Positions 2,880-62,462 of a stretch of 64,000 nt of DNA are shown one piece after another. This DNA comes from Phycisphaerales bacterium. Lineage in GTDB: Bacteria; Planctomycetota; Phycisphaerae; Phycisphaerales; UBA1924. Numbering within the stretch: the stretch's first letter is position 1; every line of letters begins with the position of its first letter. The stretch spans positions 1 to 64,000 of the forward strand of contig JALUWX010000119.1 of the NCBI GenBank assembly GCA_027019265.1, in the 5' to 3' direction. The position numbers were made by a program, and so were the translations under genes. The notes below the pieces were generated by a model. It ran no database searches, was not told the DNA's origin, and worked only from the letters and a program-made list of their open reading frames with translations.

Positions 2880-3794
2880 TCATGATGGGTGGGCGCGTTC
2901 GCGCTGGGCGATCATGTTCGCGAAGTTCCGGCCGAGGAGGAGGTGGAGGCGGGTGTAGAGGATCGCGAAGATGATGGGGCCGATCATGAAGCACATGGAG
3001 CCGATGATGACCATGATGGGGCCGGACCAGATGAGGTGTTTGGCGCGTGCGAACATGGCTTGGTCGAGGGTGAGACGCGCGATGTGCTTGAGGTAGAGCA
3101 TGTGCTGGATCCAGAGGACGATCATGTTCGCGAGGACGGCGATCCCGAGGACGGCGAGGATGATGAGGATGACGATGTCGGAGGTTTGGAAGGTCCCGCT
3201 CTGGAGCCAGGTGGAGGATCCGGTGAGGATGGTGACGGCGTTGTAGACGCCGAAGAGAAAGGAGAGGATCGTTCCGATCGCTTGGAGGACGAGGGTGACG
3301 CGTGTCGTTCGTCGGGTGCTGTCTCGGGTGAGCCCGGGTGGGATCTCGGTGATGGGGGAGGTGATCTTCCAGCAGCCGTAGACGAGGAGGAGGACGGCTC
3401 CGGTGTTGAGCAGGTTGGTGATGAGCCCGAAGATGACCTGGGTCCGGTTGAAGGTGTAGGGCTGCCCGGGCTGGACGATCTGGAAGTGCGCGATGTTGAT
3501 GTAGATGCTTCCTGCGGTGTTGAGCACGACGATGATGACGTAGAGGACGCAGGCGGTGAAGGCGAGGGTGAAGCCCTTGCGGATGGCGCGGAGGGTTTCG
3601 GTGTTGACGGCGGCGAAGGGGCCGGGGGGGTAGGAGAGGGAGGCGGGGAGCCCGCATTCGGGGCAGGGGGAGTCGGGGTCGGTGCCGGAGAGGTCGTAGT
3701 TGCAGGTCACGCAGACGGGTGGGTGTGATGGGGTGTCCGGGAGATTGGGTTTTTCGATCCGGTAGGGGTCGTTGTTGTTGGAGTGTTCGGGCAT
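2880..3794 (-). CDS. Zinc-ribbon multi-pass membrane protein
   Basis: This 304-residue protein has an N-terminal C-x2-C...C-x2-C zinc ribbon (CVTCNYDLSG ... CPECG, residues about 28-48) and at least four hydrophobic segments (near residues 75-95, 120-140, 170-190 and 200-220, plus one around 260-280). This arrangement is common among uncharacterised Planctomycetota membrane proteins. The function is unknown. The start ATG lies six bases after a TACACT box, with no Shine-Dalgarno sequence, so the mRNA is probably leaderless. It converges on gdhA and is transcribed in the same direction as ftsH. The zinc ribbon alone does not define a role. Confidence 0.8.
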   Translation of the reverse strand: MPEHSNNNDPYRIEKPNLPDTPSHPPVCVTCNYDLSGTDPDSPCPECGLPASLSYPPGPFAAVNTETLRAIRKGFTLAFTACVLYVIIVVLNTAGSIYINIAHFQIVQPGQPYTFNRTQVIFGLITNLLNTGAVLLLVYGCWKITSPITEIPPGLTRDSTRRTTRVTLVLQAIGTILSFLFGVYNAVTILTGSSTWLQSGTFQTSDIVILIILAVLGIAVLANMIVLWIQHMLYLKHIARLTLDQAMFARAKHLIWSGPIMVIIGSMCFMIGPIIFAILYTRLHLLLGRNFANMIAQRERAHPS

Positions 3795-3800
3795 GGGGCG

Positions 3801-3806
3801 AGTGTA
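3801..3806 (-). promoter_or_regulatory. -10 box TACACT, leaderless start
   Basis: Read on the minus strand, TACACT ends six bases before the ATG at 3794. That distance places the expected transcription start at or next to the start codon. Confidence 0.55.
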
Positions 3807-3890
3807 CAGGACGGAGTGGGTGTCGTGAGGAGAGATCCTGCTTTGCCTTTCGGGTCAGAGCAGGGCACCCTTGGGAAGGAATGGATGTGA

Positions 3891-3917
3891 AAGCGCCCCG
3901 CTTGGGGCGGGGCGCTT
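3891..3917 (-). terminator. Terminator of ftsH
   Basis: A perfect 10-bp stem (AAGCGCCCCG / CGGGGCGCTT) with a 7-nt loop lies 27 bp downstream of the ftsH stop. The T-run after it is short, so rho-independent function is likely but not certain. Confidence 0.65.
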
Positions 3918-3943
3918 GGGGGGATTGGGATGGGGTAGATTGG

Positions 3944-5998
<2,055 letters not shown>

Positions 5999-6174
5999 GC
6001 TCGTCCTGGTTGGGGTGGAGTCGTGTCCGGCTTGGCCGTGCGTGGACTATCGGTCCGTTCGTCGTGATTCTTCCCTGCGATGCGATGATCCGCGTTTTGT
6101 GCGCGTGGAACAGCGTTGCTTATTGTAGATACGTCGCTCGGGGGGCTTCGGATCGCGCGGGGGTTCGGGTGGTG

Positions 6175-6696
6175 TTACCAGCGGGCGCGGAGCTGTTCGA
6201 CGAGGTCCCGGGCGAGCTCGTCGATGGCTTCTCGTTCGGCGTGTTCGAGGCGTTCCCCGATCCCGCGCTGGGGGACGAAGGTGGAGGTGGCGCTGAAGGC
6301 GGCTCGGGCGGAGAGGATGTCCCCGGTCCGGTTGTCCACCCATTCGTAGCGGATGGAGAGGGTGACCCCCTGCTCCTGGACGAGCCCGGTCCCGGGGGTC
6401 TGGGAGAGCTGGGAGAGTCGGTGCTGGGTGAGCGCGCCGGTGAGGGTGGTGTCGGCGTTGTCGGGGCGGGCGATGCGCCAGGGGGTGCGGGTCTGGATCT
6501 GTTTGATGATGGCGTCGGTGAGGGAGGTTTCGAGTCCTCGCTCGATGGTGTTGTTCTGGAAGATGGGGACGGCGATGGTGCGGATGGAGTCGTCGTAGGC
6601 GGAACCCAAGGCGTACCCGCGTGTGGGGTCGGAGGCGCAGGCGCTGAGGGGCGCGAGCGTGGTGAGGAGGGCGATGGCGATGAGCGCGCGGATCAT
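6175..6696 (-). CDS. lptE: LptE-family outer-membrane lipoprotein
   Basis: This 173-residue protein begins with a lipoprotein signal peptide; the lipobox is LSAC with Cys at about 20. The body (GYALGSAYDDSIRTIAVPIF, then 'IERGLETSLTDAIIKQI') matches the pattern of LptE-like proteins. LptE plugs LptD and helps deliver lipopolysaccharide to the outer leaflet. It overlaps the upstream BamD-like gene by 4 bp (ATGA), so the two are translationally coupled. This pairing suggests an envelope-assembly operon. Assignment rests on the N-terminal pattern and the lipobox; the exact partner in this organism is inferred. Confidence 0.75.
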   Translation of the reverse strand: MIRALIAIALLTTLAPLSACASDPTRGYALGSAYDDSIRTIAVPIFQNNTIERGLETSLTDAIIKQIQTRTPWRIARPDNADTTLTGALTQHRLSQLSQTPGTGLVQEQGVTLSIRYEWVDNRTGDILSARAAFSATSTFVPQRGIGERLEHAEREAIDELARDLVEQLRARW

Positions 6697-7685
6697 GAGG
6701 CGGGTGTGGTCTCGGTGGTGTCTTCGTCGAAAGTGAGCCAGCCCTGTTCGAGCATGAGGTCGAGGGCGTCGTCGGCGGCGATGGTTGCGGGGTGACGGCG
6801 GATCAGTCGCGCGAGGATGAACTTGGCGGAGGTTGGATCGTCGGTTTTGAGGTACCAGCGCGCGGTGTCGAGGGCTTGCTGGGCGGCGGATTCGTCGATC
6901 CAGGCTTCGAGCCCTTCGGTGATCCCGGAGCGGATGGATTCGGCCGGGAATCGTGCTCGGTAGTCTTCGATGAGGAGCTTTGCGTCAAGGAGCCCTGAAC
7001 CGTCGTAGCGAGGACCTTTGAACCTCGCGATGTTGCACTCGATCTCTCGGAGCATGGCGAAGCGGGTCTGGGTGGATTCGGGGTAGTTCTCGCGGAAGAT
7101 CTCGTACATCTCGGCGGCGAGTTTGAGTTCGCGGCGCTTGTAGTAGTAGTTTGCGAGTTCGAGGGCGGCGGTTTCGGCGAGGGCGGAGCCCGGGAGTCGT
7201 TCCTGGACCCGGATGATGATCTCGACTCCGGTGGGTCGTCCGGACTCGACCCGGAGCCCGAAGAGCTTTTGCTTGAGCCCGCCCAGGTAACGGAGCGCGG
7301 TTTCGTATTCGCGCTCGATAGCGAGTTGGTAGTACGGGGTCTCTGGGTAGTCCCGGATGACGGCTTCGAAATCGAAGAGGGCTTTGTACTCGTCGTTGTT
7401 GGCGGTGCGGGCGATCCCGCGGAGGTAGTAGGCCTGGGGGAGGGTGTCGTTGTGTCGGCGTTTGTGCTCCTCGATCCAGTCGGTGAGGAGGGAGGAGGCC
7501 TTTCCTGGCTTGTCCTCGGCGATGAGGCGCTGGGCTTCGGACATGACCCATTCGTCGGACCCGGGTTCGGGGGCGCTGGTCTGGGTGAAGGATCCGGAGT
7601 CGTCGAGTTCGAACTCGGTGGACTGCGCGTGGGCGCTCCAGGTGAGCGCGGCGATGAGGAGGATCGTTGGGGTGGTTCGTTTCAC
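6693..7685 (-). CDS. BamD-like periplasmic tetratricopeptide protein
   Basis: This 330-residue exported protein starts with a signal peptide (hydrophobic residues 6-16, cleavage after Ala-His-Ala near 20). Several TPR-like helical pairs follow, for example 'AYYLRGIARTANNDEYKALF' and 'ALELANYYYKRRELKLAAEM'. The spacing and motifs resemble the outer-membrane-assembly factor BamD/YfiO family. It lacks a lipobox cysteine, which classical BamD has, so it is called BamD-like only. I use the GTG at 7685 as start because longer in-frame extensions upstream are low-complexity and would precede the signal peptide. It overlaps lptE by 4 bp. No strong Shine-Dalgarno sequence is visible. Confidence 0.65.
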   Translation of the reverse strand: MKRTTPTILLIAALTWSAHAQSTEFELDDSGSFTQTSAPEPGSDEWVMSEAQRLIAEDKPGKASSLLTDWIEEHKRRHNDTLPQAYYLRGIARTANNDEYKALFDFEAVIRDYPETPYYQLAIEREYETALRYLGGLKQKLFGLRVESGRPTGVEIIIRVQERLPGSALAETAALELANYYYKRRELKLAAEMYEIFRENYPESTQTRFAMLREIECNIARFKGPRYDGSGLLDAKLLIEDYRARFPAESIRSGITEGLEAWIDESAAQQALDTARWYLKTDDPTSAKFILARLIRRHPATIAADDALDLMLEQGWLTFDEDTTETTPAS

Positions 7686-7724
7686 GCGGAACCATAGGGC
7701 GATGGGTCTGGGATGGGGTGAAAA

Positions 7725-7754
7725 GAGAACCGCCCGTCGTGACGGGCGGCTCTC
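7725..7754 (-). terminator. Terminator of the spondin gene
   Basis: Read on the minus strand, this is a long hairpin (GAGAGCCGCCCGTC paired with GACGGGCGGTTCTC, one mismatch) running straight into TTTT. It lies about 90 bp after the stop at 7845. This is a strong rho-independent terminator. Confidence 0.85.
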
Positions 7755-7844
7755 GTGTGGAGAAAGGGACAAAGGTGCAACAGGAAGCCCCAATCTCAAG
7801 AGTTCGGCTCCGCACAGAGAGAAGCCGGGGTCAGATATGGGGGG

Positions 7845-8642
7845 TCAGTTTCGGCGGCGGCGGGTGAGGAGGGGGGCGCCGACGATGGCGAGGGCGATGC
7901 TGGAGGGGGCGGGGACGATGGTGATGCGCCCGAGGAGGGTGGATTCGGTGAAGATCTGGTCGATGGAGTCGCCGTTGGCGGTCCCGGTGCCGACGAAGGA
8001 GGCGAGGTAGTCGATGTCTCCGGAGTCGGAGAAGAAGGCGCGGATGACGCCGTCCTCACTGGCGGAATCGCCGCCCAGGGCGCTGAATGCGGCGCCTCCG
8101 GAGGCGTTGTTGAACTCGGAGCCGTTGTCGCGGACGTCGCGGCCGTAGAACTCGATGGTGACGGGGCCGGCGAAGGAGCCGTCCTTGTTGAAGATGTTGT
8201 AGGCGAAGGGGTTGTCGTTCCCGACGAAGAGGTCGTTGGAGGGGACGATCATGGAGGCGAAGGAGAAGTAGCGGTTCGTGGCGCTGTCGGCGACGTCGAT
8301 ATCGAAGGAGGCGGACTCTCCGGGGGAGTAGACGGGTGCGTCGCCGTCGAATGCGACGGAGGCGAGGGTGGCTTGGGTTGCGCCGGGGTTGTTTGCGGCG
8401 AATCGATCGGAGATGGGTGCGGTGTTTCCGCCTTCGGCGATCTGGGTGATGCCGTCGAAGAGGTCTGCGTCGGCGCTGGTGTCGTAGGAATCGAAGGAGC
8501 CGTCGTGGAACCCGACCCAGACGGGGGTGAAGAAGAACCCGCCGTCGGCGGAGGTGTTCTCGATGGTGACGGTGATGGGGGACGCGGTTGCGGCGGTTGC
8601 TGCGAGCGCGAGGGCGGTGATGGTGATGGTCGTGGTGTTCAT
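7845..8642 (-). CDS. Spondin-domain secreted protein with VPAP sorting tail
   Basis: This 265-residue protein has a signal peptide (residues 1-21). A Spondin_N-type domain follows immediately (TVTIENTS, then FFFTPVWVGFHDGSFDSYD, then 'DLFDGITQIAEGGN'). The C-terminus is VPAPSSIALAIVG...RRRRN: a short proline motif, a hydrophobic segment and an Arg cluster. This is the PEP-CTERM-like anchor or sorting signal found in many Phycisphaerae. It is predicted to be exported and processed at the cell surface; its ligand is unknown. The ATG at 8642 follows GGAGGAG, seven bases away. The gene is divergent from the OxyR-like gene, so shared regulation is possible. Confidence 0.85.
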   Translation of the reverse strand: MNTTTITITALALAATAATASPITVTIENTSADGGFFFTPVWVGFHDGSFDSYDTSADADLFDGITQIAEGGNTAPISDRFAANNPGATQATLASVAFDGDAPVYSPGESASFDIDVADSATNRYFSFASMIVPSNDLFVGNDNPFAYNIFNKDGSFAGPVTIEFYGRDVRDNGSEFNNASGGAAFSALGGDSASEDGVIRAFFSDSGDIDYLASFVGTGTANGDSIDQIFTESTLLGRITIVPAPSSIALAIVGAPLLTRRRRN

Positions 8643-8696
8643 GGTGTCTCCTCCTGTGTTCGAATGGATGTGAACGGGCTCGTGGACCCGGGTGAG

Positions 8697-8711
8697 ACAA
8701 TGAGACATTGT
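8697..8711. promoter_or_regulatory. 15-bp dyad between spondin and OxyR-like genes
   Basis: ACAATG-AGA-CATTGT is a perfect 6+3+6 inverted repeat in the middle of the 195-bp divergent intergenic region. Its position suits an operator for the adjacent LysR-type regulator, but the sequence does not match the long OxyR consensus. Confidence 0.4.
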
Positions 8712-8837
8712 GTTTCGTTTGTTCGCGCGGGAACATCGACGGGGCGCGATGGGTTCGATCGGGTGTGACGATCGGTTCGGATCGATCCGCGCGATGGGTT
8801 GCTGCGGATGGTGTTCTGGGTCTGAAAGGGGATGATG

Positions 8838-9758
8838 ATGGAGCTCGGACAGCTTCGTGCTTTTGTTCAGGTGATCGATCAGGGGGGGTTTACCGCTGCG
8901 GCTCGTCATATGGGGGTGTCTCAATCGACGCTGAGCGCGCAGATCGGTCGGCTCGAGGATGCGCTGGACCTGATGCTGTTCGATCGGAGCGGGCGCGGGG
9001 CGGTGCTGACGGATGCTGGGGAGGTGCTTGCGCCGAGGGCGCGGGCGCTGCTGCGGGATGCGTGGTCGATCGAGTCGGAGCTGATGAGCTCGGTTCGTGA
9101 GGGGTGTGTGGAGCTGCGGATCGGGGCGATCCCGACGGTGTCGGGGTTTTTGATGGCTTCGGTGATCGAGGGTTTGGTCGAGCGGATGCCCAGGATCCGG
9201 GTGAGCTTCGAGGAAGCGCCGACGGAGGATCTGGTCCGGATGATCGAGACGGGTTCGATCCACGGGGCGCTGATGGCGCGGGTGGGATCGGTCGGGAAGC
9301 TGGAGCAGCGTGTGATCGGGGAGGAGCGTTTGGTGCTGGCCGGGGCGAAGGGGGACGGGGTGTTCGAGCGGGGGTGTCTGGATCTGGAGGACATCCGGAA
9401 GCGCGGGATCATCTCGCTCGATGAGGTGCATTGTCTCGGGGAGCAGACGAGGAACTGGTGTCTGGATCGGGGATTGGAGGGGTCGATCCGGTGTCGCGCG
9501 ACCCAGCTGGGGACGATGATGACGCTGATCGAGGACGGGGTGGGGATCTCGCTTGTCCCGGAGATGGTGATGGCGACGAGCGGGGATGGGAAGCTTCGGT
9601 ATCGGGAGGCGCGTCCGGAGTGTCCGACGAGGACGATCGTGCTGTGCTCGAAACCGGGCGCGGCGCTTCCGGGGGCAATGAAGGATGTGGAGGCGCTGGC
9701 GAAGGCGCGGATGGGGGCGCTGCTGGAATCGGCGCGGGGGATGATCGGGGGCGCGTAG
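8838..9758 (+). CDS. OxyR-like LysR family regulator
   Basis: This 306-residue LysR-type regulator has an N-terminal winged helix-turn-helix (QLRAFVQVIDQGGFTAAARH, then 'GVSQSTLSAQIGRLE') and a periplasmic-binding-like effector domain. Starting at the third of three consecutive ATGs (8832, 8835, 8838) gives the best spacing from AAAGGGG. It also places two cysteines at 199 and 208 in HCLGEQTRNWC, the same numbering and 9-residue separation as the peroxide-sensing disulfide of E. coli OxyR. A peroxide-sensing role is therefore plausible. No catalase or peroxiredoxin gene lies nearby, and targets are unknown. It is followed 8 bp later by a second LysR gene. Confidence 0.85.
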   Translation: MELGQLRAFVQVIDQGGFTAAARHMGVSQSTLSAQIGRLEDALDLMLFDRSGRGAVLTDAGEVLAPRARALLRDAWSIESELMSSVREGCVELRIGAIPTVSGFLMASVIEGLVERMPRIRVSFEEAPTEDLVRMIETGSIHGALMARVGSVGKLEQRVIGEERLVLAGAKGDGVFERGCLDLEDIRKRGIISLDEVHCLGEQTRNWCLDRGLEGSIRCRATQLGTMMTLIEDGVGISLVPEMVMATSGDGKLRYREARPECPTRTIVLCSKPGAALPGAMKDVEALAKARMGALLESARGMIGGA

Positions 9759-9761
9759 GAT
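9756..9761 (+). promoter_or_regulatory. -10 box TAGGAT fused to a stop codon
   Basis: The TAG stop codon of the OxyR-like gene (9756-9758) forms the first half of TAGGAT, which ends five bases before the ATG of the next LysR gene. This predicts an internal leaderless promoter. Confidence 0.5.
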
Positions 9762-9766
9762 CGCGC

Positions 9767-10639
9767 ATGGATCTGCGGGTGATGCGACAGATTGTGGAGA
9801 TCGCGGAGCACGGGCACATGACCCGGGCGGCGGAGACGCTGGGGGTGACACAGTCGGCGCTGAGCGCGGCGCTCCGGAAGCTTGAGGACGAGCTGGGGAC
9901 GGAGCTGTTCCATCGGACGGGTCACGGGGTGGAAGCGACGGAGGCGGGGAAGGTGTTTATCGAGCATGCGCGGATCACGATGCTGGCCGCGGATCAGACG
10001 ACGCGCGCGGTGCGGTCGCTCGTGGGGCTCGAGACGGGGTCGATCCGGGTGGGCGCGGGGGCGACGGCGGCGGGGTATCTGCTCCCGGGCGCGATCCAAG
10101 CGGTTCGGGCGCGGTATCCGGGGCTCCGGTTCTCGATCCGGGAAGCGGGGAGTGCGCAGGTGGCGCAGGGGGTGTTGTCGGGGGAGCTGGATCTTGGGGT
10201 GGTGACGCTCCCGATCGATCATCCGAGGGGGGATGAGTTGATGGTGGTGAAGGAGATCCGGGACGAGCTGATGCTGATCGTTCCCGAGGGGCATGCGCTG
10301 CACGGGCGCAAGACGTTCCGGTGGTCGGACATCGAGGGGGATCCGGTGGTGGCGTTTGAAGCGGGGTCGGCGGTGCGGAAGCTGATCGATGCGGCGGCGG
10401 CGGAGCACGGGGTGGGGCTCGAGGTGGTGATGGAGCTTCGGTCGATCGAGAGTATTGTGCAGATGGTGCGCGCGGATATCGGGGTGGGGTTTGTGAGCAA
10501 GCACGGGTTGCCCCCCAATATGGGGCTGCGCTGCAAGGACGGGGCGTTGACCCGGAGACTGGGGGTGGTTCGGGCGCTGGATCGGCTTCCGAGTCGGGCT
10601 TCGGCGGTGTTTGAGGGGGAGCTGTTGGAACGGCTGTGA
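9767..10639 (+). CDS. LysR family transcriptional regulator
   Basis: This 290-residue protein has a typical LysR DNA-binding domain (MRQIVEIAEHGHMTRAAET, then 'GVTQSALSAALRKLEDELG') and a substrate-binding domain with 'GSIRVGAGATAAGYLLPGAI'. It lacks the OxyR cysteine pair, so it is a different functional type from its upstream neighbour. The ATG at 9767 lies five bases after TAGGAT with no Shine-Dalgarno sequence. The tandem of two LysR genes ahead of acnA is unusual. Whether it controls acnA (start 152 bp downstream) or distant genes cannot be told from the sequence. Confidence 0.88.
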   Translation: MDLRVMRQIVEIAEHGHMTRAAETLGVTQSALSAALRKLEDELGTELFHRTGHGVEATEAGKVFIEHARITMLAADQTTRAVRSLVGLETGSIRVGAGATAAGYLLPGAIQAVRARYPGLRFSIREAGSAQVAQGVLSGELDLGVVTLPIDHPRGDELMVVKEIRDELMLIVPEGHALHGRKTFRWSDIEGDPVVAFEAGSAVRKLIDAAAAEHGVGLEVVMELRSIESIVQMVRADIGVGFVSKHGLPPNMGLRCKDGALTRRLGVVRALDRLPSRASAVFEGELLERL

Positions 10640-10664
10640 GGCTCGTTGCGACCGGCTCGCACTG

Positions 10665-10740
10665 CATTGATTCTATTGATACAACAGGTGATCTGGATTG
10701 ATTTGATTGATTGATCTTTGGGTTCGATACTTGTCTCATG
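10665..10740 (+). promoter_or_regulatory. AT-rich acnA upstream region with TTGAT repeats
   Basis: This stretch is conspicuously AT-rich for the window and holds at least five TTGAT units, including GATTGATTTGATTGATTGAT at 10696-10715 and two more near 10668 and 10676. It lies in the 152-bp gap before acnA. It probably contains the acnA promoter and regulator sites, but I cannot assign a specific -35/-10 pair with confidence. Confidence 0.45.
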
Positions 10741-10791
10741 GGATGGTCCGGGCCACCCCCCCACTGCTGAGCTTTCGAACCACGGAGATCC

Positions 10792-13566
10792 ATGATGAGC
10801 AACGACCCGTTCAACGCGCGTGAGACCCTTTCGGTCAACGGGACCGACTACAGCTTTGTGAATCTGAAGGCGCTGCAGGCGCAGGGGGTGGGGAACATCG
10901 GAAAGATGCCGTACTCGATCCGGGTGCTGCTCGAGGCGATGGTGCGGAACCTGGACGGGTTCATCGTGACGAACGACGACATCGCGGGGCTTGCGAACTA
11001 CAACGCGAAGGATGTGAACTCGGTCGAGATGCCCTTCATGCCCGGTCGTGTGGTGCTTCAGGACTTCACGGGGGTGCCTTGTGTGGTTGACCTTGCGGCG
11101 ATGCGTGACGCGATGAAGAACCTGGGTGGGGATGCGGAGCAGATCAATCCGGCCGTCGCGTGTGACCTTGTGATCGACCACTCGGTGCAGGTGGACGACT
11201 TTGCGACGCGCGTGGCGCTGACGATCAACGCGGAGAAGGAGTTCGAGCGGAACAACGAGCGGTACTCGTTCCTCAAGTGGGGGCAGGAGTCGCTCGACAA
11301 CTTCCGCGCGGTTCCCCCGGCAACGGGGATCGTGCACCAGGTGAACCTGGAGTACCTGGCTCGGGGGTGTCTGACCAAGAGCGTGGACGGCGCGACGTGG
11401 GTGTACCCGGACTCGCTCGTGGGGACGGACTCGCACACGACGATGATCAACGGCGTTGGTGTGCTCGGTTGGGGTGTGGGCGGGATCGAAGCGGAAGCGG
11501 TGATGCTCGGTCAGCCCGTGTACATGCTGACCCCCGAGGTGGTCGGGTTCAAGCTCAAGGGGAAGCTCCCCGAGGGCGCGACGGCGACGGACCTGGTGCT
11601 CACGGTGACGCAGATGCTCCGGGCGCACGGGGTGGTCGAGAAGTTCGTGGAGTTCTTCGGCGAGGGGATGGCGGAGCTTTCGATCCCGGATCGCGCGACG
11701 ATCGCGAACATGGCTCCGGAGTACGGCGCGACGTGCGGGTTCTTCCCGATCGACGCGAAGACGATCGAGTTCTTCCGGTTTACCGGCAAGACCGAAGAGG
11801 AATGCGCGCTCACGGAAGCGTGGGCGAAGGCGAGCGGGTTCTTCTGGACCCCGGATGCGCCGGAGCCCGAGTTCGGCGCGGTGCTCGAGCTTGATCTCGC
11901 GAGTGTGAAGCCCTGTGTTGCGGGTCCGAAGCGCCCCCAGGATCGGATCGATCTGGATTCGCTCCACACGGCTTGGAACGAGATGCTGACCGCGCCGATG
12001 GGTCCGAAGGGGCTCGGGGTCGATCCGTCCAAGACGGGCGCGACGGCGAAGGTCGTCCACACGGAGGCGTCACACCCGGAGACGATCGGTCAGGAATCCA
12101 TGCTCGCGCACGGGTCGATCGTGATCGCGGCGATTACGTCGTGCACGAACACGTCGAACCCGGATGTGCTGATCGCGGCGGGGTTGGTGGCGAAGAAGGC
12201 GCACGAGCTGGGGATCACGCGCAAGCCGTGGGTGAAGACGTCGCTCGCGCCGGGTTCGAAGGTGGTGACGGAGTACCTGGACAAGTCGGGGCTCACGGCG
12301 CACCTGGACGCGGTGGGGTTCAACACGGTCGGGTACGGGTGCACGACGTGTATCGGGAACTCGGGGCCGCTGCCGCCGGAGATCGAGGGCGCGATCAAGG
12401 AGGGCGATCTTGCGGTGGCTTCGATTCTTTCGGGGAACCGGAACTTCGAGGGTCGTGTCCACCCGGAGGTTCGCGGGAACTTCCTTGCGAGCCCGCCGCT
12501 CGTTGTTGCGTACGCGATGGCTGGTCGGATCGATGTCGATGTGTACAACGAGCCTTTGTGTCAGACCCCGGAGGGGAAGGACGTGTACCTGAAGGACATC
12601 TGGCCGACGCGCGCAGAGATCGACGAGATCGTGAACTCGTCGGTGACGACGGAGCAGTTCGAGCGGAAGTACGGGTCGGTGTACTCGGAGAACGAGACGT
12701 GGAACGCGGTTCCCGTGTCGAAGAGCGAGCTGTACGGGTGGGAGGATTCGAGCACGTACATCCAGAACCCGCCGTTCTTCGAGGGGATGACGGAGGAGGC
12801 GCCCGGGTTCGGGACGATCGGTGGGGCGCGGTGCCTGGTGTACGTCGGTGACTCGGTGACGACGGACCACATCTCGCCGGCGGGTCGGATCGAGCCCGAG
12901 ACCCCTGCGGGTCAGTACCTGCTGGCGCAGGGTGTGGCGCAGTCGGCGTTCAACTCGTACGGGTCGCGCCGCGGGAACGATCGTGTGATGACGCGCGGGA
13001 CGTTCGCGAATGTGCGTGTGAAGAACAAGATCGCGAAGACGGGGTCCGAGCAGCCCGAGGGCGGTTGGACCCGGAACTTCACGAAGGGCGCGGATCTTTC
13101 GAGCGCTCCTGTGGAGTACATCTGGGACGCGGCGCAGGACTACAAGTCTGCGGGGACCCCGCTGGTGGTGCTTGCGGGCAAGGACTACGGGATGGGTTCG
13201 TCGCGCGACTGGGCGGCGAAGGGGACGCTGCTGCTGGGTGTGAAGGCGGTGATCGCGGAGAGCTTCGAGCGGATCCACCGGAGCAACCTGGTGTTCATGG
13301 GTGTGCTGCCCTTGGTGTTCAAGGACGGTCAGAGCGCGGAGTCGCTCGGGCTCAAGGGCGATGAGACGTTCGACATCATGATGCCCGATCCGGTGGAGCC
13401 CCGCTGCGATGTGACGGTGAAGGCGACGAAGCCCGACGGGTCGAGCGTGGAGTTCACGGCGATGTGCCGGATCGATACGCCGGTGGAGATCGAGTACTTC
13501 AAGAACGGCGGGATCCTGCAGACGGTGATCCGGAAGAAGCTGAACGAGAGCAAGCAGATGGCTTAA
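10792..13566 (+). CDS. acnA: Aconitate hydratase A
   Basis: This enzyme isomerises citrate to isocitrate in the TCA cycle using a [4Fe-4S] cluster. The 924 residues match the AcnA/IRP1-type size. Recognisable landmarks are [12 protein letters not shown] near the N-terminus, the Ser-His motif '[20 protein letters not shown]' near residues 205-225, the cluster cysteines in SCTNTSNP and [12 protein letters not shown], and the swivelling C-terminal domain with [14 protein letters not shown] and '[18 protein letters not shown]'. The start is one of two adjacent ATGs (10792, 10795) preceded by GGAG. A strong terminator follows 27 bp after the stop. It is monocistronic behind two LysR genes. Confidence 0.97.
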
Positions 13567-13593
13567 ATTTACCACAGCATTCCAATTGAACTG

Positions 13594-13618
13594 GCACGGC
13601 GCGCAGCCGTGCTTTTTT
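13594..13618 (+). terminator. Terminator of acnA
   Basis: The stem GCACGGC / GCCGTGC with a 5-nt loop is followed directly by six T residues. This is a textbook rho-independent terminator, and its T-run abuts the -10-like box of the next gene. Confidence 0.92.
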
Positions 13619-13621
13619 CTA

Positions 13622-13627
13622 TATGAT
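13622..13627 (+). promoter_or_regulatory. -10 box TATGAT, leaderless start
   Basis: TATGAT ends six bases before the ATG at 13634 and begins four bases after the T-run of the acnA terminator. Any -35 element would fall inside the terminator hairpin. Confidence 0.45.
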
Positions 13628-13633
13628 CTCTAC

Positions 13634-14374
13634 ATGACTCTCTCCGAACCGCCAAAGAACCAGATTGACGCCTTCTTGCGCCTGGGTATCGAACTGGAGT
13701 CTGACACTATGAGATGCGGGATCGAAATCAGAAATCTATCGAAATCTGATTACAAAAGAGAATGGCTGGATTGCAGACTCATACTCGTCTCTGTAATTCG
13801 ATTTACTCATATGTTTCGTTCAGGCATCCCCGGCAAGACAAATGAATCCATCAGCAATCGGCTACAACTGATAGCTCAATACGCTCAGGGCGTAGGCCTA
13901 ACTGAGACAGCAATTTCAGAAGGGCTGTATGTCAAAGCAAACGCACTCCTGAAACAGGATTACGAAATTCTAACTCGAATCCGCGAATACAAAGCTGGAG
14001 CAGTGAAAGTTGGCAAAACCCCGAATGTAAAACATGCCCCTGAAGGATCACAGCAATTTTACGGTGATCTGAACTCTGTCGCTCACCCATCCAATCCTGA
14101 TTTGCTTGCTGCTCTAACCCGTCAGCACATCGACGGCGAAATTGCAGGAGTTTCTTCGTCACCAGTTTATCTTCGAGAAACCGCATGCTCTCACTATGAA
14201 CTTCATGTTTGGATCACACTTGAAATCGCCAGAGAAGCTCTACTGCTCTCATGTGAAATGTACGACAAACACGAGGACATGATGGATCTGTCATTGCCAT
14301 TCAGGATGTTTCTCACTGCGGTCAAATCACTAGAATCTGTAGGCTTTGAAGTAGAAACTTCAACAAGGGAGTAA
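13634..14374 (+). CDS. AT-rich gene of unknown function, probably acquired
   Basis: This 246-residue soluble, largely helical protein has no signal peptide. I do not recognise the family with confidence. A stretch reading QFYGDLNSVAHPSNPDLLAA (about residues 135-154) recalls the 'L..YxHPS' signature of some uncharacterised helical (DUF5677-like or HEPN-like) proteins, but this is a weak resemblance. My count over 13681-13860 gives about 43% GC, far below the neighbours. Codons such as AAA, GAA, CTC, TCA and AGA, rare elsewhere, are common. I place the start at 13634 because the earlier in-frame ATG at 13586 lies upstream of and across the acnA terminator. The stop is 2 bp before the VOC gene, whose ribosome-binding AAGGGAG lies inside this ORF. 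Confidence 0.7.
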   Translation: MTLSEPPKNQIDAFLRLGIELESDTMRCGIEIRNLSKSDYKREWLDCRLILVSVIRFTHMFRSGIPGKTNESISNRLQLIAQYAQGVGLTETAISEGLYVKANALLKQDYEILTRIREYKAGAVKVGKTPNVKHAPEGSQQFYGDLNSVAHPSNPDLLAALTRQHIDGEIAGVSSSPVYLRETACSHYELHVWITLEIAREALLLSCEMYDKHEDMMDLSLPFRMFLTAVKSLESVGFEVETSTRE

Positions 14375-14376
14375 GC

Positions 14377-14760
14377 ATGTCTGACCTCAACAGCGTGCAC
14401 AACCGGTTCGTGTGGTGTGATATCCCGGTGGATGATCTGGATCGGGCGATCGGGTTCTACGAGGGGGTGATGGGGATCTCGTGTCATCGGGAGTCGTTCG
14501 GGGAGTTCAACTTCGCGGTGCTCGACCACGACCAGGGGAACGGGGGGTGTCTGGTGCCGCGGCGTGAGGGGCAGGGGCGGAGCGGGGCGCTGGTGTACCT
14601 GAATGTGGACGGGCGGATCCGGGATGCGGTGGCGAAGGTGAAGGAACTCGGGGGGAAGGTGGTGGAGGATGTGCACGCGATCGGGCCGCACGGGTGTCGG
14701 GCGCTTATCGAGGATTCGGAGGGGAACCCGATGGCGCTGCACTCGACGACGGACGCTTGA
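14377..14760 (+). CDS. VOC family (glyoxalase-like) protein
   Basis: This 127-residue protein has the vicinal-oxygen-chelate fold signature. It opens with HNRFVWCDIPVDDLDRAIGF and 'YEGVMG', the usual first beta-alpha unit, and its end has the 'IGPHGCRALIEDSEGNPMAL' strand pattern. It resembles small single-domain bleomycin-resistance/glyoxalase-type proteins of unknown substrate. Metal ligands cannot be assigned securely. Its composition is normal high GC, in contrast with the gene directly upstream. A ribosome-binding AAGGGAG lies within the 3' end of that upstream ORF, so translation is probably coupled. Confidence 0.8.
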   Translation: MSDLNSVHNRFVWCDIPVDDLDRAIGFYEGVMGISCHRESFGEFNFAVLDHDQGNGGCLVPRREGQGRSGALVYLNVDGRIRDAVAKVKELGGKVVEDVHAIGPHGCRALIEDSEGNPMALHSTTDA

Positions 14761-14785
14761 TCGGACGGGGGGCTACAAAAAGACA

Positions 14786-14823
14786 GCCGTCCGTTCTTCG
14801 GGGGGACCCGGGGAACGGACGGC
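14786..14823 (-). terminator. Terminator of the small basic peptide gene
   Basis: A perfect 11-bp stem (GCCGTCCGTTC / GAACGGACGGC) has a 16-nt loop. On the minus strand it is followed by TGTCTTTTTG, which marks it as the terminator of the minus-strand gene at 14862-14963. It may also stop the VOC transcript on the other strand. Confidence 0.75.
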
Positions 14824-14861
14824 GCTTTCGATCGGGGCGGCTTAAGCCCGTGTCGTTTGGA

Positions 14862-14963
14862 TTACTTCTTCTTGGTGGGCTTGGCGGCCGGCTTCGTGCT
14901 GCCTTTGGGGGCGGGCTTGGTCGCGTTCTTGGCCGGGGCGGTGATCTTCTTGGTGGTTGCCAT
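14862..14963 (-). CDS. 33-residue Lys/Ala/Pro-rich basic protein
   Basis: This tiny gene encodes 33 residues, starting MATTKKITAPAKNATKPAP and ending KPTKKK. About a third of the residues are lysine and the rest are mostly Ala, Pro and Thr. The composition matches the tails of bacterial histone H1-like and AlgP-like proteins, which bind nucleic acid by charge. Support for a real gene is strong for its size: AAGGAG eight bases before the ATG, a candidate promoter upstream (TTGAGT, 16 bp, CATACT at 15049-15022) and a perfect hairpin terminator downstream. The role is unknown. A DNA- or RNA-condensing function is inference from composition only. Confidence 0.7.
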   Translation of the reverse strand: MATTKKITAPAKNATKPAPKGSTKPAAKPTKKK

Positions 14964-15021
14964 GGTGTGTGCTCCTTCAGAGAAGCGTTCGTCGCTCGCG
15001 GAGTGCGTGCGGCATGCGCAA

Positions 15022-15049
15022 AGTATGACATGTTCGGCGACAAACTCAA
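15022..15049 (-). promoter_or_regulatory. Candidate promoter of the small basic peptide
   Basis: On the minus strand, TTGAGT (15049-15044) and CATACT (15027-15022) are separated by 16 bp, followed by a leader of about 50 nt to the ATG at 14963. It is one of the few -35/-10 pairs that can be seen in this window. Confidence 0.5.
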
Positions 15050-15128
15050 GTCGTCTGAGGCAGCGGGTTACAAATTATTTTTCGCAAGTGCCTTTGGCGG
15101 GGCACGCACGGGTTCGGAGGGGGACTGA

Positions 15129-17846: not shown

Positions 17847-17852
17847 GGATGG

Positions 17853-17858
17853 ATGGTA
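17853..17858 (-). promoter_or_regulatory. -10 box TACCAT, leaderless start of ppc
   Basis: On the minus strand, TACCAT ends six bases before the ppc ATG; no Shine-Dalgarno sequence is present. Confidence 0.5.
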
Positions 17859-17907
17859 CGGGGGAGGATGGGTGGATCGGGTTGTGCGAACGGTCGATGT
17901 TGGTGGT

Positions 17908-18039
17908 ATGGAGACGGCTTTGGTTGTCATCGGGTGGGCCGTGGGGTGTGTGATCCTGCTCGGGGTGACGCGCTGGCTCATCCGGATCGGGGGCGCGGAT
18001 TCGTCGTGGTTCAAGGGCGGTGGCTCGGGATCGCTGTGA
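17908..18039 (+). CDS. Possible 43-residue single-TM protein
   Basis: A short ORF between ppc and recQ encodes [20 protein letters not shown]..., a hydrophobic segment of about 18 residues followed by a basic turn and a Gly/Ser-rich tail. This is what a small inner-membrane protein looks like. No clear Shine-Dalgarno sequence or promoter is seen, so the gene is uncertain. It lies only 58 bp before recQ on the same strand. Confidence 0.35.
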
Positions 18040-18085
18040 GCGTTATTGCTCGGGTGGATCGGGGATATCGCGCGGGCGGGACCTG

Positions 18086-18091
18086 TATACT
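18086..18091 (+). promoter_or_regulatory. -10 box TATACT, leaderless start of recQ
   Basis: TATACT ends six bases before the GTG at 18098. It is the closest match to the sigma-70 -10 consensus in the leaderless set. Confidence 0.6.
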
Positions 18092-18097
18092 CGCCCT

Positions 18098-19990: not shown

Positions 19991-20463
19991 GCGGTGCGAC
20001 GGGTTCGGGATGGCGCGTTGTGGAGGTTCCGACGGCGGAGGTGCTGCCATTGCGTGCGATGGTGCTGCGCCCGGGGTGGGGGTCGGACATGTGCGAGATG
20101 CCCGGCGACACGAAGGCGGGGACGTTCCATCTCGGAGCGCGTCGGGATTCGGACGGCGCGATCCTCGCGGTGATGACGATGATGGTCGATGACACCCCCG
20201 CTGCTGGATCGTTGACTCCTGCGCCGGCGTGGCGGATCCGGGGGATGGCTTCTCATCCGGAGGCGCGGGGGATGGGGTGCGGGAAGGCGCTTGTGGTTGA
20301 GGGGTGCGCGCGGGTGTGGGGTGAGCGGAAGGACCCGGTGTGGTGCAACGCGCGGCGGGTTGCGTACGGGTTTTACGAGAAGCTCGGGTTCCGGTTCGAG
20401 GGGGGGGAGTTCGAGATCGAGGGGATCGGGCCGCACATGGTGATGGTGCGGGATCCGGAGTGA
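19987..20463 (+). CDS. GNAT family N-acetyltransferase
   Basis: This 158-residue single-domain protein has the GNAT core: the acetyl-CoA loop [20 protein letters not shown] (about residues 83-102, matching V/I-x-x-x-x-Q/R-x-x-G-x-G/A) and the closing '[19 protein letters not shown]' strand-helix typical of the fold. The substrate is unknown. Its start overlaps the recQ stop as ATGA, so it is translationally coupled to a DNA helicase. It ends 7 bp before the convergent terC gene. Confidence 0.88.
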
Positions 20464-28448: not shown

Positions 28449-28454
28449 TACACT
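28449..28454 (+). promoter_or_regulatory. -10 box TACACT, leaderless start of pgsA
   Basis: TACACT ends six bases before the pgsA ATG at 28461; no Shine-Dalgarno sequence is present. Confidence 0.55.
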
Positions 28455-37312: not shown

Positions 37313-38173
37313 TCAGAACGGGTCGGGGGCTTTGAACGTCATCCGGCGGCCGCTGACGGGGTGGTGGATCGTGAGCATGGAAGCGTGGAGCATGAGGCGC
37401 GGGGCGTTGGGGGTGCCGTAGAGCTCATCGCCGACGACGGGGGCGCCGAGCCCCTCGGTTTCGTCGCCCTCGGGGAAGCCCACGGTGGTGATGTTGGGGT
37501 GCGCCGTGTGGACCCGGAGTTGGTGGGTGCGCCCCGTGACGGGTTCGAGCTCGACCCGGGTGACGGGTCTGCCGTCGTAGGTTTCTCGCGCGAGGACCCG
37601 GAATCGGGTTACGGAGGGTTTCCCGTAGATGTAGTCCACGAGCATGAGGGGACGGACGTCCATGTCCTTGCGCATGGGGGTGTTGACTTCGCCGGAGTCG
37701 GATTCGAGGTGCCCTTCGAGGAGCGCGAGGTAGCGTTTGGCGGTGTTCCGGTCCTCGAACTGCTTGGAGAGGTTCCGGTGGGTGTGCGCGTCGAGCGCGA
37801 GGATGATGATCCCGGAGGTGGAGAGGTCCAAACGGTGGCAGGTCATCGGTCCCGTGGCGTTCGGATAGAGCTCGGAGACCCGGGAACGGACACAGTCCTG
37901 CTTTTCGGGCGCGATCCCGGGGACGGTGAGGAGCCCGGCTGGTTTGTCGACGACGACGAAATGCTCGTCCTCGTGGAGGATCGAGAGGGGATCGGTCGGG
38001 GGGGTGTAGTCGAATGTCTCGACGGGCTCGGTCCGGACTCTCCGGAGGAGGTGGTCCGGGATCTCGGGGTTGATGATCTTGGGTTTTTTGGGTTTGGAGC
38101 CCTTGCGCTTGCGCCGACGTTTGGGGCGTTTACCTTCTGAGGGATCGGGGCGCGCTGACCTAGGATCGTCCAT
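37313..38173 (-). CDS. RluA-family pseudouridine synthase
   Basis: This 286-residue protein has a Lys/Arg-rich N-terminal tail (RRRKRKG...), then the RluA fold with 'EHFVVVDKPAGLLTVPG', the catalytic Asp in CHRLDLSTSGIIILAL and 'EPVTGRTHQLRVHTAHPNI'. It isomerises uridine in rRNA or tRNA; the target site is unknown. I choose the ATG at 38173 because a TACACT box lies seven bases upstream. This start codon overlaps the divergent start codon at 38172 within CATG. Confidence 0.9.
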   Translation of the reverse strand: MDDPRSARPDPSEGKRPKRRRKRKGSKPKKPKIINPEIPDHLLRRVRTEPVETFDYTPPTDPLSILHEDEHFVVVDKPAGLLTVPGIAPEKQDCVRSRVSELYPNATGPMTCHRLDLSTSGIIILALDAHTHRNLSKQFEDRNTAKRYLALLEGHLESDSGEVNTPMRKDMDVRPLMLVDYIYGKPSVTRFRVLARETYDGRPVTRVELEPVTGRTHQLRVHTAHPNITTVGFPEGDETEGLGAPVVGDELYGTPNAPRLMLHASMLTIHHPVSGRRMTFKAPDPF

Positions 38174-38186
38174 GAAGATGAGTGTA
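38161..38186. promoter_or_regulatory. Interlocked divergent leaderless promoters
   Basis: Plus strand: TAGGAT (38161-38166), five bases before the ATG at 38172. Minus strand: TACACT (38186-38181), seven bases before the ATG at 38173. Each -10 box lies in the coding region of the other gene and the two start codons share CATG at 38171-38174. Confidence 0.6.
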
Positions 38187-40649: not shown

Positions 40650-40655
40650 TACCCT
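40650..40655 (+). promoter_or_regulatory. -10 box TACCCT, leaderless start
   Basis: TACCCT ends six bases before the ATG at 40662. Confidence 0.4.
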
Positions 40656-47923: not shown

Positions 47924-47929
47924 TAGGAT
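47924..47929 (+). promoter_or_regulatory. -10 box TAGGAT, leaderless start
   Basis: TAGGAT ends seven bases before the ATG at 47937. Confidence 0.55.
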
Positions 47930-48926: not shown

Positions 48927-48946
48927 CCCCCCTCCTGCTCTCGCCG

Positions 48947-50029: not shown

Positions 50030-50098
50030 GGGAGAGCGTACGCACGGACAGCGTGGCGCGATGGGTGGTGGGGTTGCTGTGTGGGGGGTGTGGGGCTG

Positions 50099-55386: not shown

Positions 55387-55392
55387 TACAGT
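55387..55392 (+). promoter_or_regulatory. -10 box TACAGT, leaderless start
   Basis: TACAGT ends five bases before the ATG at 55398. Confidence 0.4.
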
Positions 55393-55397
55393 GGGAC

Positions 55398-56105
55398 ATG
55401 GGTCCGATCACCCTGGAATGCGATGATCTTGCGTGCGCTCTGGGCTCGACGAGCCCTGGGGCGCTCGATGCGCTCACGCTCCGGCACGGGACATCGGGGT
55501 GGGTCCCGATCCTCCTCGACCCCGGGTGCGCGGCGCTCCCCGATCGGATCGGCGCGAGCGAACTCATCGTCCCCGACGGATCCCCGGCGGGGTCTACGGG
55601 CTGGAGGATCTTGGACCGATCACCCGGTTCTGCACGATTCGTCCGGGAGTTCGGGTCCGGCTCGACCCGGATGGGCGCGGTCCAGCGTGTGGAGCTTTCG
55701 CCGGGACGGGTGACGATCGACCAGTCCGTCACGAATCTTGGGGACTCCCCCACCCCGTGCTGGATGGCGCGGCGGTTCCGGGTCCCGAGGGTCCTGCTTT
55801 CGACGAGCGACACCCTGGATGTGGGTCGGGACGGGGAGGGCGCGTCGTGCTCGTGGGTCCGATCCGGGATCACGCTCCACCTAGACCATTCGGGCGCATT
55901 CGATCGACTCGGGTTCGAGGAGCCCGAATCCGGGGTCGGGACTGCTGGGGAGTCGATGTACGTCGAGATCACGATGTCAACGATCGATCCCAGGGTGCTC
56001 GGGAGCGGGAGCGAGCGCGAGCATGCGCCGGACCTGGGTCCGGGGGAGACGTTGAGCGCGACGATCGCGCTGAGTGTGACGTCGGGGCGCGCGGTGTCGC
56101 CGTAG
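55398..56105 (+). CDS. Conserved hypothetical, aldose-epimerase-like size
   Basis: This 235-residue protein is soluble with no signal peptide or TM helix. I recognise no family. The sequence is beta-rich with several Gly/Ser turns ('GSARFVREFGSGSTRMGAVQ', 'CWMARRFRVPRVLLSTSDTL') and only three or four Cys. A fold of galactose-mutarotase type is possible but is only a guess. Start: ATG at 55398 after TACAGT. Its TAG stop codon (56103-56105) is the first half of the TAGGAT box of the EVE gene. Confidence 0.7.
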   Translation: MGPITLECDDLACALGSTSPGALDALTLRHGTSGWVPILLDPGCAALPDRIGASELIVPDGSPAGSTGWRILDRSPGSARFVREFGSGSTRMGAVQRVELSPGRVTIDQSVTNLGDSPTPCWMARRFRVPRVLLSTSDTLDVGRDGEGASCSWVRSGITLHLDHSGAFDRLGFEEPESGVGTAGESMYVEITMSTIDPRVLGSGSEREHAPDLGPGETLSATIALSVTSGRAVSP

Positions 56106-56108
56106 GAT
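56103..56108 (+). promoter_or_regulatory. -10 box TAGGAT fused to a stop codon
   Basis: The stop TAG of the upstream gene is part of TAGGAT, which ends six bases before the EVE gene ATG at 56115. Confidence 0.55.
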
Positions 56109-56114
56109 GGGTGT

Positions 56115-56546: not shown

Positions 56547-56660
56547 GCAACCATACTTCATTTTTTCGGTATCCCGTGACTGGTGATGTGCTCCGGCGCG
56601 TCACTGATTTGGTCGCGCGCTGTTTGTGCGCGCATCGCACAGAAGAAGAGAGGAGCCGGC

Positions 56661-58613: not shown

Positions 58614-58632
58614 CGTGTGGGTGCTCCACACG

Positions 58633-58638
58633 AGTGTA
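58633..58638 (-). promoter_or_regulatory. -10 box TACACT of the HD-GYP gene
   Basis: On the minus strand, TACACT lies 19 bp upstream of the ATG, giving a short leader (about 12 nt) with GGAG. The HD-GYP gene may therefore be transcribed independently of the GGDEF-EAL gene. Confidence 0.45.
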
Positions 58639-58658
58639 CGGAGTCGGGGGCTTCCGGT

Positions 58659-61202: not shown

Positions 61203-61347
61203 CGATGTGGATCCCTCAACCGAGAGACAGCGATGACCCCGAGCGGAACGAGGTGCCGATCCGCTCAGTCGGCAGAATCACGGGGGCGGATCCCATCCGA
61301 TCACACAGGATCGGGTCAGATTAGGGGTAACGGCTGAGAAGAAGTGA

Positions 61348-62451
61348 TTATCGGTTGTGGAACATCGAGATCTGCTTATCCGCGAGATAACTCGATCGGA
61401 CGAGGGGCCCGGACACCACGAGCTTGACTCCGGCGCGTTCGCCCATCGCGATGTATCGCTCGAACTCGTCGGGGTGGACCCAGCGATCGATCGGGAGGTG
61501 GTTGCGCGTGGGCTGGAGGTACTGGCCGATCGTGATGATGTCACAGGGCGCGCCGCGCGAGGGGTCGTTCTCGTCGCGCGGGCCGTCGTGATCGGACGTC
61601 ATCTCCACAAGGTCGTGGAAGAGCTGCTCGACTTCGTGCTCCCGCTCCCCGATCCCGACCATGATCCCGGTCTTCGCGACAGCGCCCTGGGCTTTGACCC
61701 GTTTGAGGAGTTCCATGGTGCGTTCGTATCGAGCGCTGGGACGGACGGCCGGGTGACAGCGCTTCACCGTTTCGAGGTTGTGCGCGATGATCTCGGGCTG
61801 CGCATCGATGACCATCTGGAGCGCGGCTTCGTCCCCTTTGAAATCCCCGATCAGGACTTCGATGGACATGTCGGGACAGGCGTCCCGGACCCGGAGGATG
61901 GTTTCTGCCCAGATCCCCGCGCCGCCGTCGGGGAGATCGTCTCGGTCCACGCTCGTGATAACGATGTGGTTGAGCCCGGCGCCGCGGAGGGATTCGGCGA
62001 CTCTCCGGGGTTCGTCTTTGTCCACGGCTCCGGGTTTCCCGGTTTTGACGTTGCAGAACCCGCACGCGCGGGTGCAGGTGTCGCCGAGGATCATGGTGGT
62101 CGCGACCCCACGGGACCAGCACTCCCCGAGGTTGGGGCAGGCCGCTTCCTCGCAGACGGTGTGGAGCGCGTGTTTCTTGACGGTTTCGCGGGTGCTCCGG
62201 AAGCCCTCGCCGTGGGGGAGTTTGGCTCGGAGCCAGGAAGGTTTTTTCTTGGGGTTCAGGTGATGGATCGCGCCGTCCTGGTTGTCGAGGATCATGGCGC
62301 TGAGCGAGACACTCGGACGGAGGGTCCGGATGGGGTCGCCACCGAGGGGTCTGGGGTGCCGTTCGAGGGTCCGCGCGATCCCGGTGCTGGGTGTTGGATT
62401 GGGCGCGGACGGGGTGGTCGGCGAGTGCTCGGATGCGGATTCGGAGGGCAT
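61348..62451 (-). CDS. lipA: Lipoyl synthase
   Basis: This radical SAM enzyme inserts two sulfur atoms into octanoyl groups on lipoate-dependent enzymes. The 367-residue protein has both clusters: the auxiliary CEEAACPNLGEC and the radical SAM CTRACGFC motif. 'MILGDTCTRACGFCNVKTGK' and the C-terminal 'SGPLVRSSY' serine region that binds the auxiliary cluster are also present. The first 52 residues are a Ser/Pro/Thr-rich extension not found in most LipA. I still use the ATG at 62451 because a TAAACT box ends five bases upstream, and no better start is supported; the ATG at 62295 is the alternative. Confidence 0.95.
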   Translation of the reverse strand: MPSESASEHSPTTPSAPNPTPSTGIARTLERHPRPLGGDPIRTLRPSVSLSAMILDNQDGAIHHLNPKKKPSWLRAKLPHGEGFRSTRETVKKHALHTVCEEAACPNLGECWSRGVATTMILGDTCTRACGFCNVKTGKPGAVDKDEPRRVAESLRGAGLNHIVITSVDRDDLPDGGAGIWAETILRVRDACPDMSIEVLIGDFKGDEAALQMVIDAQPEIIAHNLETVKRCHPAVRPSARYERTMELLKRVKAQGAVAKTGIMVGIGEREHEVEQLFHDLVEMTSDHDGPRDENDPSRGAPCDIITIGQYLQPTRNHLPIDRWVHPDEFERYIAMGERAGVKLVVSGPLVRSSYLADKQISMFHNR

Positions 62452-62456
62452 AACGG

Positions 62457-62462
62457 AGTTTA
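62457..62462 (-). promoter_or_regulatory. -10 box TAAACT, leaderless start of lipA
   Basis: On the minus strand, TAAACT ends five bases before the lipA ATG at 62451. Confidence 0.5.

What the first reader, a model, noticed from the sequence alone, without database searches (positions are those of the whole stretch)
3792..62462. Widespread leaderless-mRNA architecture: TANNNT ending 5-8 nt before the start codon
At fourteen genes a TANNNT hexamer ends 5-8 nt before the start codon, with no Shine-Dalgarno sequence between: 3794(-) TACACT, 9767 TAGGAT, 13634 TATGAT, 17846(-) TACCAT, 18098 TATACT, 28461 TACACT, 29869 TACCAT, 38172 TAGGAT, 38173(-) TACACT, 40662 TACCCT, 47937 TAGGAT, 55398 TACAGT, 56115 TAGGAT and 62451(-) TAAACT. 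A bacterial -10 box places the transcription start about 7 nt downstream, that is, on the start codon. Other genes here have strong AGGAGG/GGAGGT sites, so two initiation modes seem to coexist. Widespread leaderless mRNA is known in some Actinobacteria and Deinococcus; I am not aware how well it is documented for this lineage. No -35 box is evident at most of the sites.
Basis: partly seen in the sequence, partly recalled or inferred. Interest (0 to 1): 0.75.

Follow-up and report, generated by a model that had tools for sequence, protein, structure and literature searches.

The report
Promoter boxes abutting start codons
In this planctomycete bacterium of the order Phycisphaerales, roughly one gene in eight appears to begin transcription at its start codon, giving messages without a leader; this mode is known from other bacterial groups and is here conserved within a lineage where it is little documented.

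Summary
All 14 TANNNT hexamers end 5-8 nt before the named codons. With a gene caller blind to upstream signals, 71 of 520 starts in 24% of the genome carry TANNNT at that spacing (21 at gap 5, 38 at gap 6), against about 8 at control distances. SD motifs avoid these starts; the boxes favour divergent first genes (39/166) over tightly packed ones (3/101); no -35 element accompanies them. Close relatives of six window genes keep the box at fixed spacing in 60 of 82 loci, recQ 17/17 and the EVE gene 8/8; orthologues of SD-led or unclassified genes have it in 6 of 134 pairs. The genome is a Phycisphaerales MAG. Pooled samples show the signal in genus, family and order, not in the rest of the phylum, one genome excepted. 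Best reading: leaderless mRNA from -10-only promoters beside SD-led initiation. The mode is known (Deinococcus, Actinobacteria); the lineage is a new member. Sites 13634, 38173(-) and 55398 are weak. Transcript ends were not mapped, so leaderlessness is inferred.

The parts
3801..3806 (-). -10-like box TACACT, gap 6, before 3794(-) (unknown protein)
   Evidence: start also called blind
9756..9761 (+). TAGGAT, gap 5, before 9767(+) LysR-type regulator; its TAG is the stop codon of the upstream gene
13622..13627 (+). TATGAT, gap 6, before 13634(+); ORF doubtful (AT-rich, negative coding score); directly follows the T-run of a terminator-like hairpin at 13593-13613
17853..17858 (-). TACCAT, gap 6, before 17846(-) PEP carboxylase; 4 of 4 close relatives have TANNNT at gap 5-6 of the aligned codon
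18086..18091 (+). TATACT, gap 6, before 18098(+) RecQ; 17 of 17 same-genus relatives have TANNNT at gap 6 of a start
28449..28454 (+). TACACT, gap 6, before 28461(+) PgsA-like; 16 of 17 same-genus relatives (the miss is cut off by the contig end)
29855..29860 (+). TACCAT, gap 8, before 29869(+) GTG of tRNA-dihydrouridine synthase; 13 of 14 same-genus relatives have TANNNT at gap 5-8 of a start 10 codons further in
38161..38166 (+). TAGGAT, gap 5, before 38172(+) PD40/TolB-like protein
38181..38186 (-). TACACT, gap 7, before 38173(-) RluA-type pseudouridine synthase; start uncertain
40650..40655 (+). TACCCT, gap 6, before 40662(+); 7 of 18 same-genus relatives have TANNNT at gap 5-8 of a candidate start
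47924..47929 (+). TAGGAT, gap 7, before 47937(+); this codon opens a signal-peptide-like N-terminus (own reading of the translation); the blind caller chose 47979
55387..55392 (+). TACAGT, gap 5, before 55398(+); of four weak relatives (23-38% identity) one has a box
56103..56108 (+). TAGGAT, gap 6, before 56115(+) EVE-domain protein; its TAG is the upstream stop codon; 8 of 8 same-genus relatives have TANNNT at gap 5-6
62457..62462 (-). TAAACT, gap 5, before 62451(-) lipoyl synthase; 8 of 18 same-genus relatives have TANNNT at gap 5-8 of a candidate start
7691..7696 (-).
50035..50040 (-).

Best explanation
The TANNNT hexamers are -10 elements of housekeeping-type promoters placed so that transcription starts on, or within a base or two of, the first base of the start codon. 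The mRNA is then leaderless and the ribosome initiates at the 5'-terminal AUG/GUG without an SD sequence. About 12-13% of genes in this Phycisphaerales genome use it, mostly genes that begin a transcription unit. Many other genes, including operon-internal ones, use SD initiation with a normal anti-SD. Shown: position, enrichment, context, exclusivity with SD, lack of a -35, conservation. Inferred: that the box is a promoter, where the transcript starts, and how the ribosome binds.
For: Sharp peak at gap 5-6 (59 of 520 starts), the length of a usual discriminator (recalled: about 6 nt between the -10 box and +1). Start-agnostic count: 85 of 519 genes have such a candidate start against 18.5 in control bins, an excess of about 13%. 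Divergent first genes 39/166, co-directional genes at <=20 nt 3/101, while SD goes the other way, 54/166 vs 54/101. SD at 8 of 71 TANNNT starts vs 215 of 449 others. Base -1 is a pyrimidine at 89% of 71 TANNNT starts vs 65% of 215 SD starts, p=8e-5, as expected of a YR initiator. Relatives keep the box at 5-8 nt while the start moves by up to 27 nt relative to the protein alignment. Orthologue pairs: 63/81 for TANNNT genes, 6/134 for other genes. Positive control D. radiodurans MP1 7/69 (0.7 expected), negative control E. coli 0/38 (1.6 expected). The 16S ends with an intact CCTCC.
Against: No transcript data. No -35 or extended -10 accompanies the boxes, so promoter recognition would rest on a three-base motif. 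A raw pattern count over the whole genome shows no excess. Of co-directional genes more than 150 nt from their neighbour, which should often start units, only 3 of 76 have the box. lipA and gene 40662 keep it in 8 and 7 of 18 same-genus relatives. Two of six sampled genomes of other families in the order had none, 0/33 and 0/28. The start caller was exact for 29 of 38 E. coli genes, so percentages are approximate.
Confidence: 0.9

Rival explanations
1. The motif is an AT-rich translation signal (a non-SD ribosome-binding or S1 site) in a leadered mRNA, not a promoter.
For: It sits close to the start and is anti-correlated with SD. Nakagawa et al. 2017 say AT-rich biases near -10 could be a Pribnow box or an S1 site (PMC5397173, passages).
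Against: A ribosome site should also serve operon-internal genes, but only 3 of 101 closely spaced ones have it while 54 of those 101 have SD. The fixed T, A and T with variable middle bases and the pyrimidine at -1 fit a -10 box and initiator.
Confidence: 0.06
2. Chance or start-choice artefact: TANNNT falls near codons picked because of it, or comes from upstream stop codons.
Against: A blind caller gives 71 vs about 8; 3 of 71 boxes overlap an upstream stop; orthologues have the box in 63 of 81 pairs against 6 of 134 for other genes.
Confidence: 0.02
3. The boxes are -10 elements but start selection lies a few nt away from the codon, so that very short leaders or internal starts are made rather than truly leaderless mRNA.
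For: Gaps range from 5 to 8; transcription start choice varies by a base or two in known promoters (recalled).
Against: The mode at gap 6 and the YR step at the start codon put +1 on the codon.
Confidence: 0.1

Closest known systems
-10 region adjacent to ORFs in Deinococcus-Thermus (PMC12340547, passages incl. abstract; Zheng et al. 2011, PMC3160421, passages)
   Same: TANNNT a few bases before the start codon, leaderless, promoter activity without a -35, coexisting with classical genes. My D. radiodurans MP1 sample shows the same gap peak.
   Different: Lower share here (about 13% of genes, against about 30-40% reported there); another phylum; no functional assay here.
Leaderless genes of Actinobacteria (Zheng et al., average 19.2%; M. 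tuberculosis PMC3898074, search listing with start of abstract only)
   Same: High-GC genome, TAnnnT pattern, mixture with SD genes.
   Different: Another phylum; I compared no actinobacterial genome here.
Leaderless class of bacteria predicted by GeneMarkS-2 (as quoted in PMC9581028, passages: 21.6% of bacterial species, up to 40% of transcripts)
   Same: Same type of prediction from upstream signals.
   Different: I did not see which genomes are in that class, so Phycisphaerales may already be among them.
Planctomycetes entry of Nakagawa et al. 2017 (PMC5397173, passages)
   Different: One species, nucleotide bias only, cause left open; my pooled samples outside the class show no excess.

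Membership tests
Leaderless (TA-led) bacterial genes | TA-like signal about 10 bp upstream of the start, sharply positioned | tested here: met
   gap 5: 21, gap 6: 38 of 520; about 2 per gap at gaps 20-60
Leaderless (TA-led) bacterial genes | No SD sequence at these genes | tested here: met
   SD in 8 of 71, inflated by TAGGAT, vs 215 of 449 others
Leaderless (TA-led) bacterial genes | Found at genes that begin transcription units | tested here: met
   39/166 divergent vs 3/101 at <=20 nt; but only 3/76 of co-directional genes >150 nt apart
Leaderless (TA-led) bacterial genes | Primary transcript 5' end at the start codon | not testable with these tools
   no transcriptome available
Deinococcus-type -10-only promoter | -10 box without a -35 element | tested here: met
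   relative entropy at most 0.06 bits at positions -24 to -18 before the box; mean TTGACA matches 2.45 vs 2.25 control (spacers 16-18) and 2.66 vs 2.64 (15-19); orthologue columns there 0.27-0.40 identity, as elsewhere upstream
Deinococcus-type -10-only promoter | Box needed for transcription in reporter assays | not testable with these tools
   bench work
SD-led initiation (for other genes) | Anti-SD at the 16S 3' end and SD at starts | tested here: met
   CCTCC present; SD at 223 of 520 starts

The most novel reading that the evidence does not exclude
Phycisphaerales run a lineage-specific dual system: about a quarter of divergent first genes are driven by promoters reduced to a bare TANNNT (no -35, no extended -10) fused to the start codon. 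This mode is inherited across families of the order and exchanged gene by gene with SD initiation (lipA, gene 40662), while most other planctomycetes lack it.
Probability: 0.5. Interest if true: 0.5.

Novelty: new member of a known kind. Interest (0 to 1): 0.4.

Why it matters
It adds an order of Planctomycetota to the bacterial groups with many likely leaderless genes, and gives orthologous gene sets in which box-led and other starts alternate between close relatives, so the switch can be studied. It also bears on annotation: start prediction that relies on SD or coding signal alone may misplace such starts (inference; my own blind caller misplaced the dihydrouridine synthase start and probably that of 47937).

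Tried and rejected
Raw whole-genome pattern count TANNNTN6ATG: 254 vs 252 for the reversed control, no power without gene starts. -35 search at spacers 16-18 and 15-19: no clear excess. Stop-codon origin of the boxes: 3 of 71. Leaderless signal in planctomycetes below 55% GC: background TANNNT too high (8-9% per four-gap bin), so absence there is weak evidence. Terminators upstream: a simple scan found 2 of 71 starts, and a scan of window 1-20000 adds 13634, too few to argue from. Literature: nine searches listed no paper that I recognised from title and abstract start as a mapped leaderless transcriptome of Planctomycetota; the library holds open-licence papers only. PMC10783764 (passages) lists Phycisphaerae in a table of anti-SD types; the passages seen say nothing on leaderless genes there.

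Full report
Source. The window is positions 1-64000 of a 129-kb contig of a 3.04-Mb genome in 122 contigs, 91.5% complete, GC of the window 64.4%. Its PEP carboxylase matches four Phycisphaerales MAGs at 72-74% identity and two more Phycisphaerae at 50% and 45%. The 16S rRNA ends in an intact anti-SD, CCTCC.

Observation. All 14 hexamers and spacings are as stated. Because a reader may choose start codons by the motif, I called genes with a Markov coding model that sees no upstream signal. In 742,616 bp of this genome, 71 of 520 starts do. The gap histogram is 1 at gap 4, 21 at 5, 38 at 6, 4 at 7, 8 at 8, 4 at 9; the control mean per four-gap bin is 7.9. Without trusting any single start, 85 of 519 genes have such a candidate within 60 nt of the called start against 18.5 in controls, an excess of about 13%. 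A raw count of the gap-6 pattern over the whole genome shows no excess, presumably because most ATGs are not starts.

Context. The box is at 39 of 166 divergent first genes, 16 of 78 co-directional genes 21-60 nt from their neighbour, 8 of 83 at 61-150, 3 of 76 beyond 150, 3 of 101 at 20 nt or less, and 2 of 16 at contig ends. SD is at 54, 23, 45, 38, 54 and 9 of the same groups. The low share beyond 150 nt is unexplained; such genes may carry leaders. TANNNT and SD rarely coincide (8 of 71, p about 1e-9), and some of the 8 can arise because TAGGAT contains AGGA. Base -1 is C or T at 89% of TANNNT starts and 65% of SD starts. Three of 71 boxes share the upstream gene's stop codon.

Promoter anatomy. 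Aligning the 71 sites on the box gives information at T, A and T (fixed by the search), a preference for A/C at the fifth base and for C after the box, and nothing at -35. Alignment of 65 close-relative sequences of six genes (five of them from the window itself) shows the same: in -24 to -18, mean column identity is 0.27-0.40, no higher than elsewhere upstream, apart from the four bases next to the box (0.56-0.62). The three fixed columns there are identical by construction, since only sequences with the box were aligned.

Conservation. For six window genes (recQ, lipA, EVE, pgsA, 40662, PEPC) I compared relatives. Leaving out the window itself, 60 of 82 same-genus or close loci have TANNNT 5-8 nt before an in-frame candidate start: recQ 17/17, EVE 8/8, pgsA 16/17 (the miss is cut by the contig end), PEPC 4/4, lipA 8/18, 40662 7/18. 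The four PEPC loci were grouped by identity, not by a genus label. Control gaps 12-15 and 18-21 gave 14 and 5 of 87 loci, the window included. More distant loci, from other families of the order plus two more distant Phycisphaerae MAGs, gave 21 of 51 after I removed one row (L266, a second piece of the same contig as L259; 22 of 52 with it); controls were 0 and 3 of 52. Some of these distant alignments are poor and offer several candidate starts. In recQ the start shifts by -18 to +21 nt relative to the protein alignment while the gap stays 6. The tRNA-dihydrouridine synthase gene, whose start my caller misplaced, has the box in 13 of 14 same-genus relatives found in the fetched loci. Across sampled own genes, orthologues of TANNNT genes have it in 63 of 81 pairs (control 12.5), of SD genes in 3 of 32 (2.7), and of other genes in 3 of 102 (3.7). 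The 'other' group contains the dihydrouridine synthase under its misplaced start (11 pairs). The pairs are not independent: six genes supply 76 of the 81, and most loci were fetched around five of those genes.

Distribution. Blind-called starts in samples of 20-60 kb per genome gave: genus 16 of 88 (control 3.0, 2 genomes), family 10 of 122 (1.5, 4 genomes), order 11 of 208 (2.8, 6 genomes, two of them with none). Elsewhere in the class 10 of 118 (control about 10, 4 genomes), and elsewhere in the phylum 16 of 443 (control about 17, 17 genomes). One of these, G174, has 5 of 39, and two others of high GC (G100, G157) have one each where almost none is expected. D. radiodurans MP1 has 7 of 69, E. 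coli 0 of 38. Power is low in AT-rich genomes.

Single sites. Best supported, by relatives: 17846(-), 18098, 28461, 29869, 56115; then 62451(-) and 40662 (in part of the relatives), and 3794(-), 9767, 38172 (blind-called start, no relatives examined) and 47937 (alternative start). Weak: 55398 (of four weak relatives, one, L198 at 23% identity, has a box) and 38173(-), whose same-genus homologues align only from residue 30 or later. Poor: 13634, before an ORF with a negative coding score in a 46%-GC stretch.

Interpretation. These properties together fit a -10 element whose +1 is the start codon, hence leaderless mRNA in addition to SD initiation. The transcript start itself is not shown.

Prior knowledge. 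Leaderless genes with TANNNT boxes are established in Deinococcus-Thermus and reported for Actinobacteria (PMC3160421, PMC12340547, passages). A leaderless class was predicted for 21.6% of bacterial species (PMC9581028, passages); I did not see its list of genomes. For Planctomycetes, a study with a single species left leaderless mRNA or S1 binding open (PMC5397173, passages). None of the papers listed appeared, from title and abstract start, to map leaderless transcripts in a planctomycete.

Noticed in passing
window 13567-14380: AT-rich island (GC 0.456 against 0.644) with ORF 13634-14374 that has a negative coding score and no Pfam or NCBIfam match; a terminator-like hairpin ends just before its TATGAT. 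Possibly acquired DNA.
   Followed up: partly
window 38171-38174: CATG: the named start codons of the TolB-like and RluA-like genes overlap, so each gene's -10-like box would lie inside the other's coding region if both starts are right.
   Followed up: partly
L164-L182 and L241-L259: lipA and gene 40662 orthologues within one genus alternate between TANNNT-led starts and starts without the box, some with GGAGG upstream (L252, L255); material for studying how initiation mode switches.
   Followed up: partly
G174 (L103-L105): A 71%-GC planctomycete outside the class has 5 of 39 called starts with TANNNT at gap 6-7, unlike the other 16 non-class genomes sampled.
   Followed up: partly
own genome, co-directional genes more than 150 nt from their neighbour: Only 3 of 76 have the box although many of these should begin transcription units; half (38) have SD.
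   Followed up: no
   Followed up: yes
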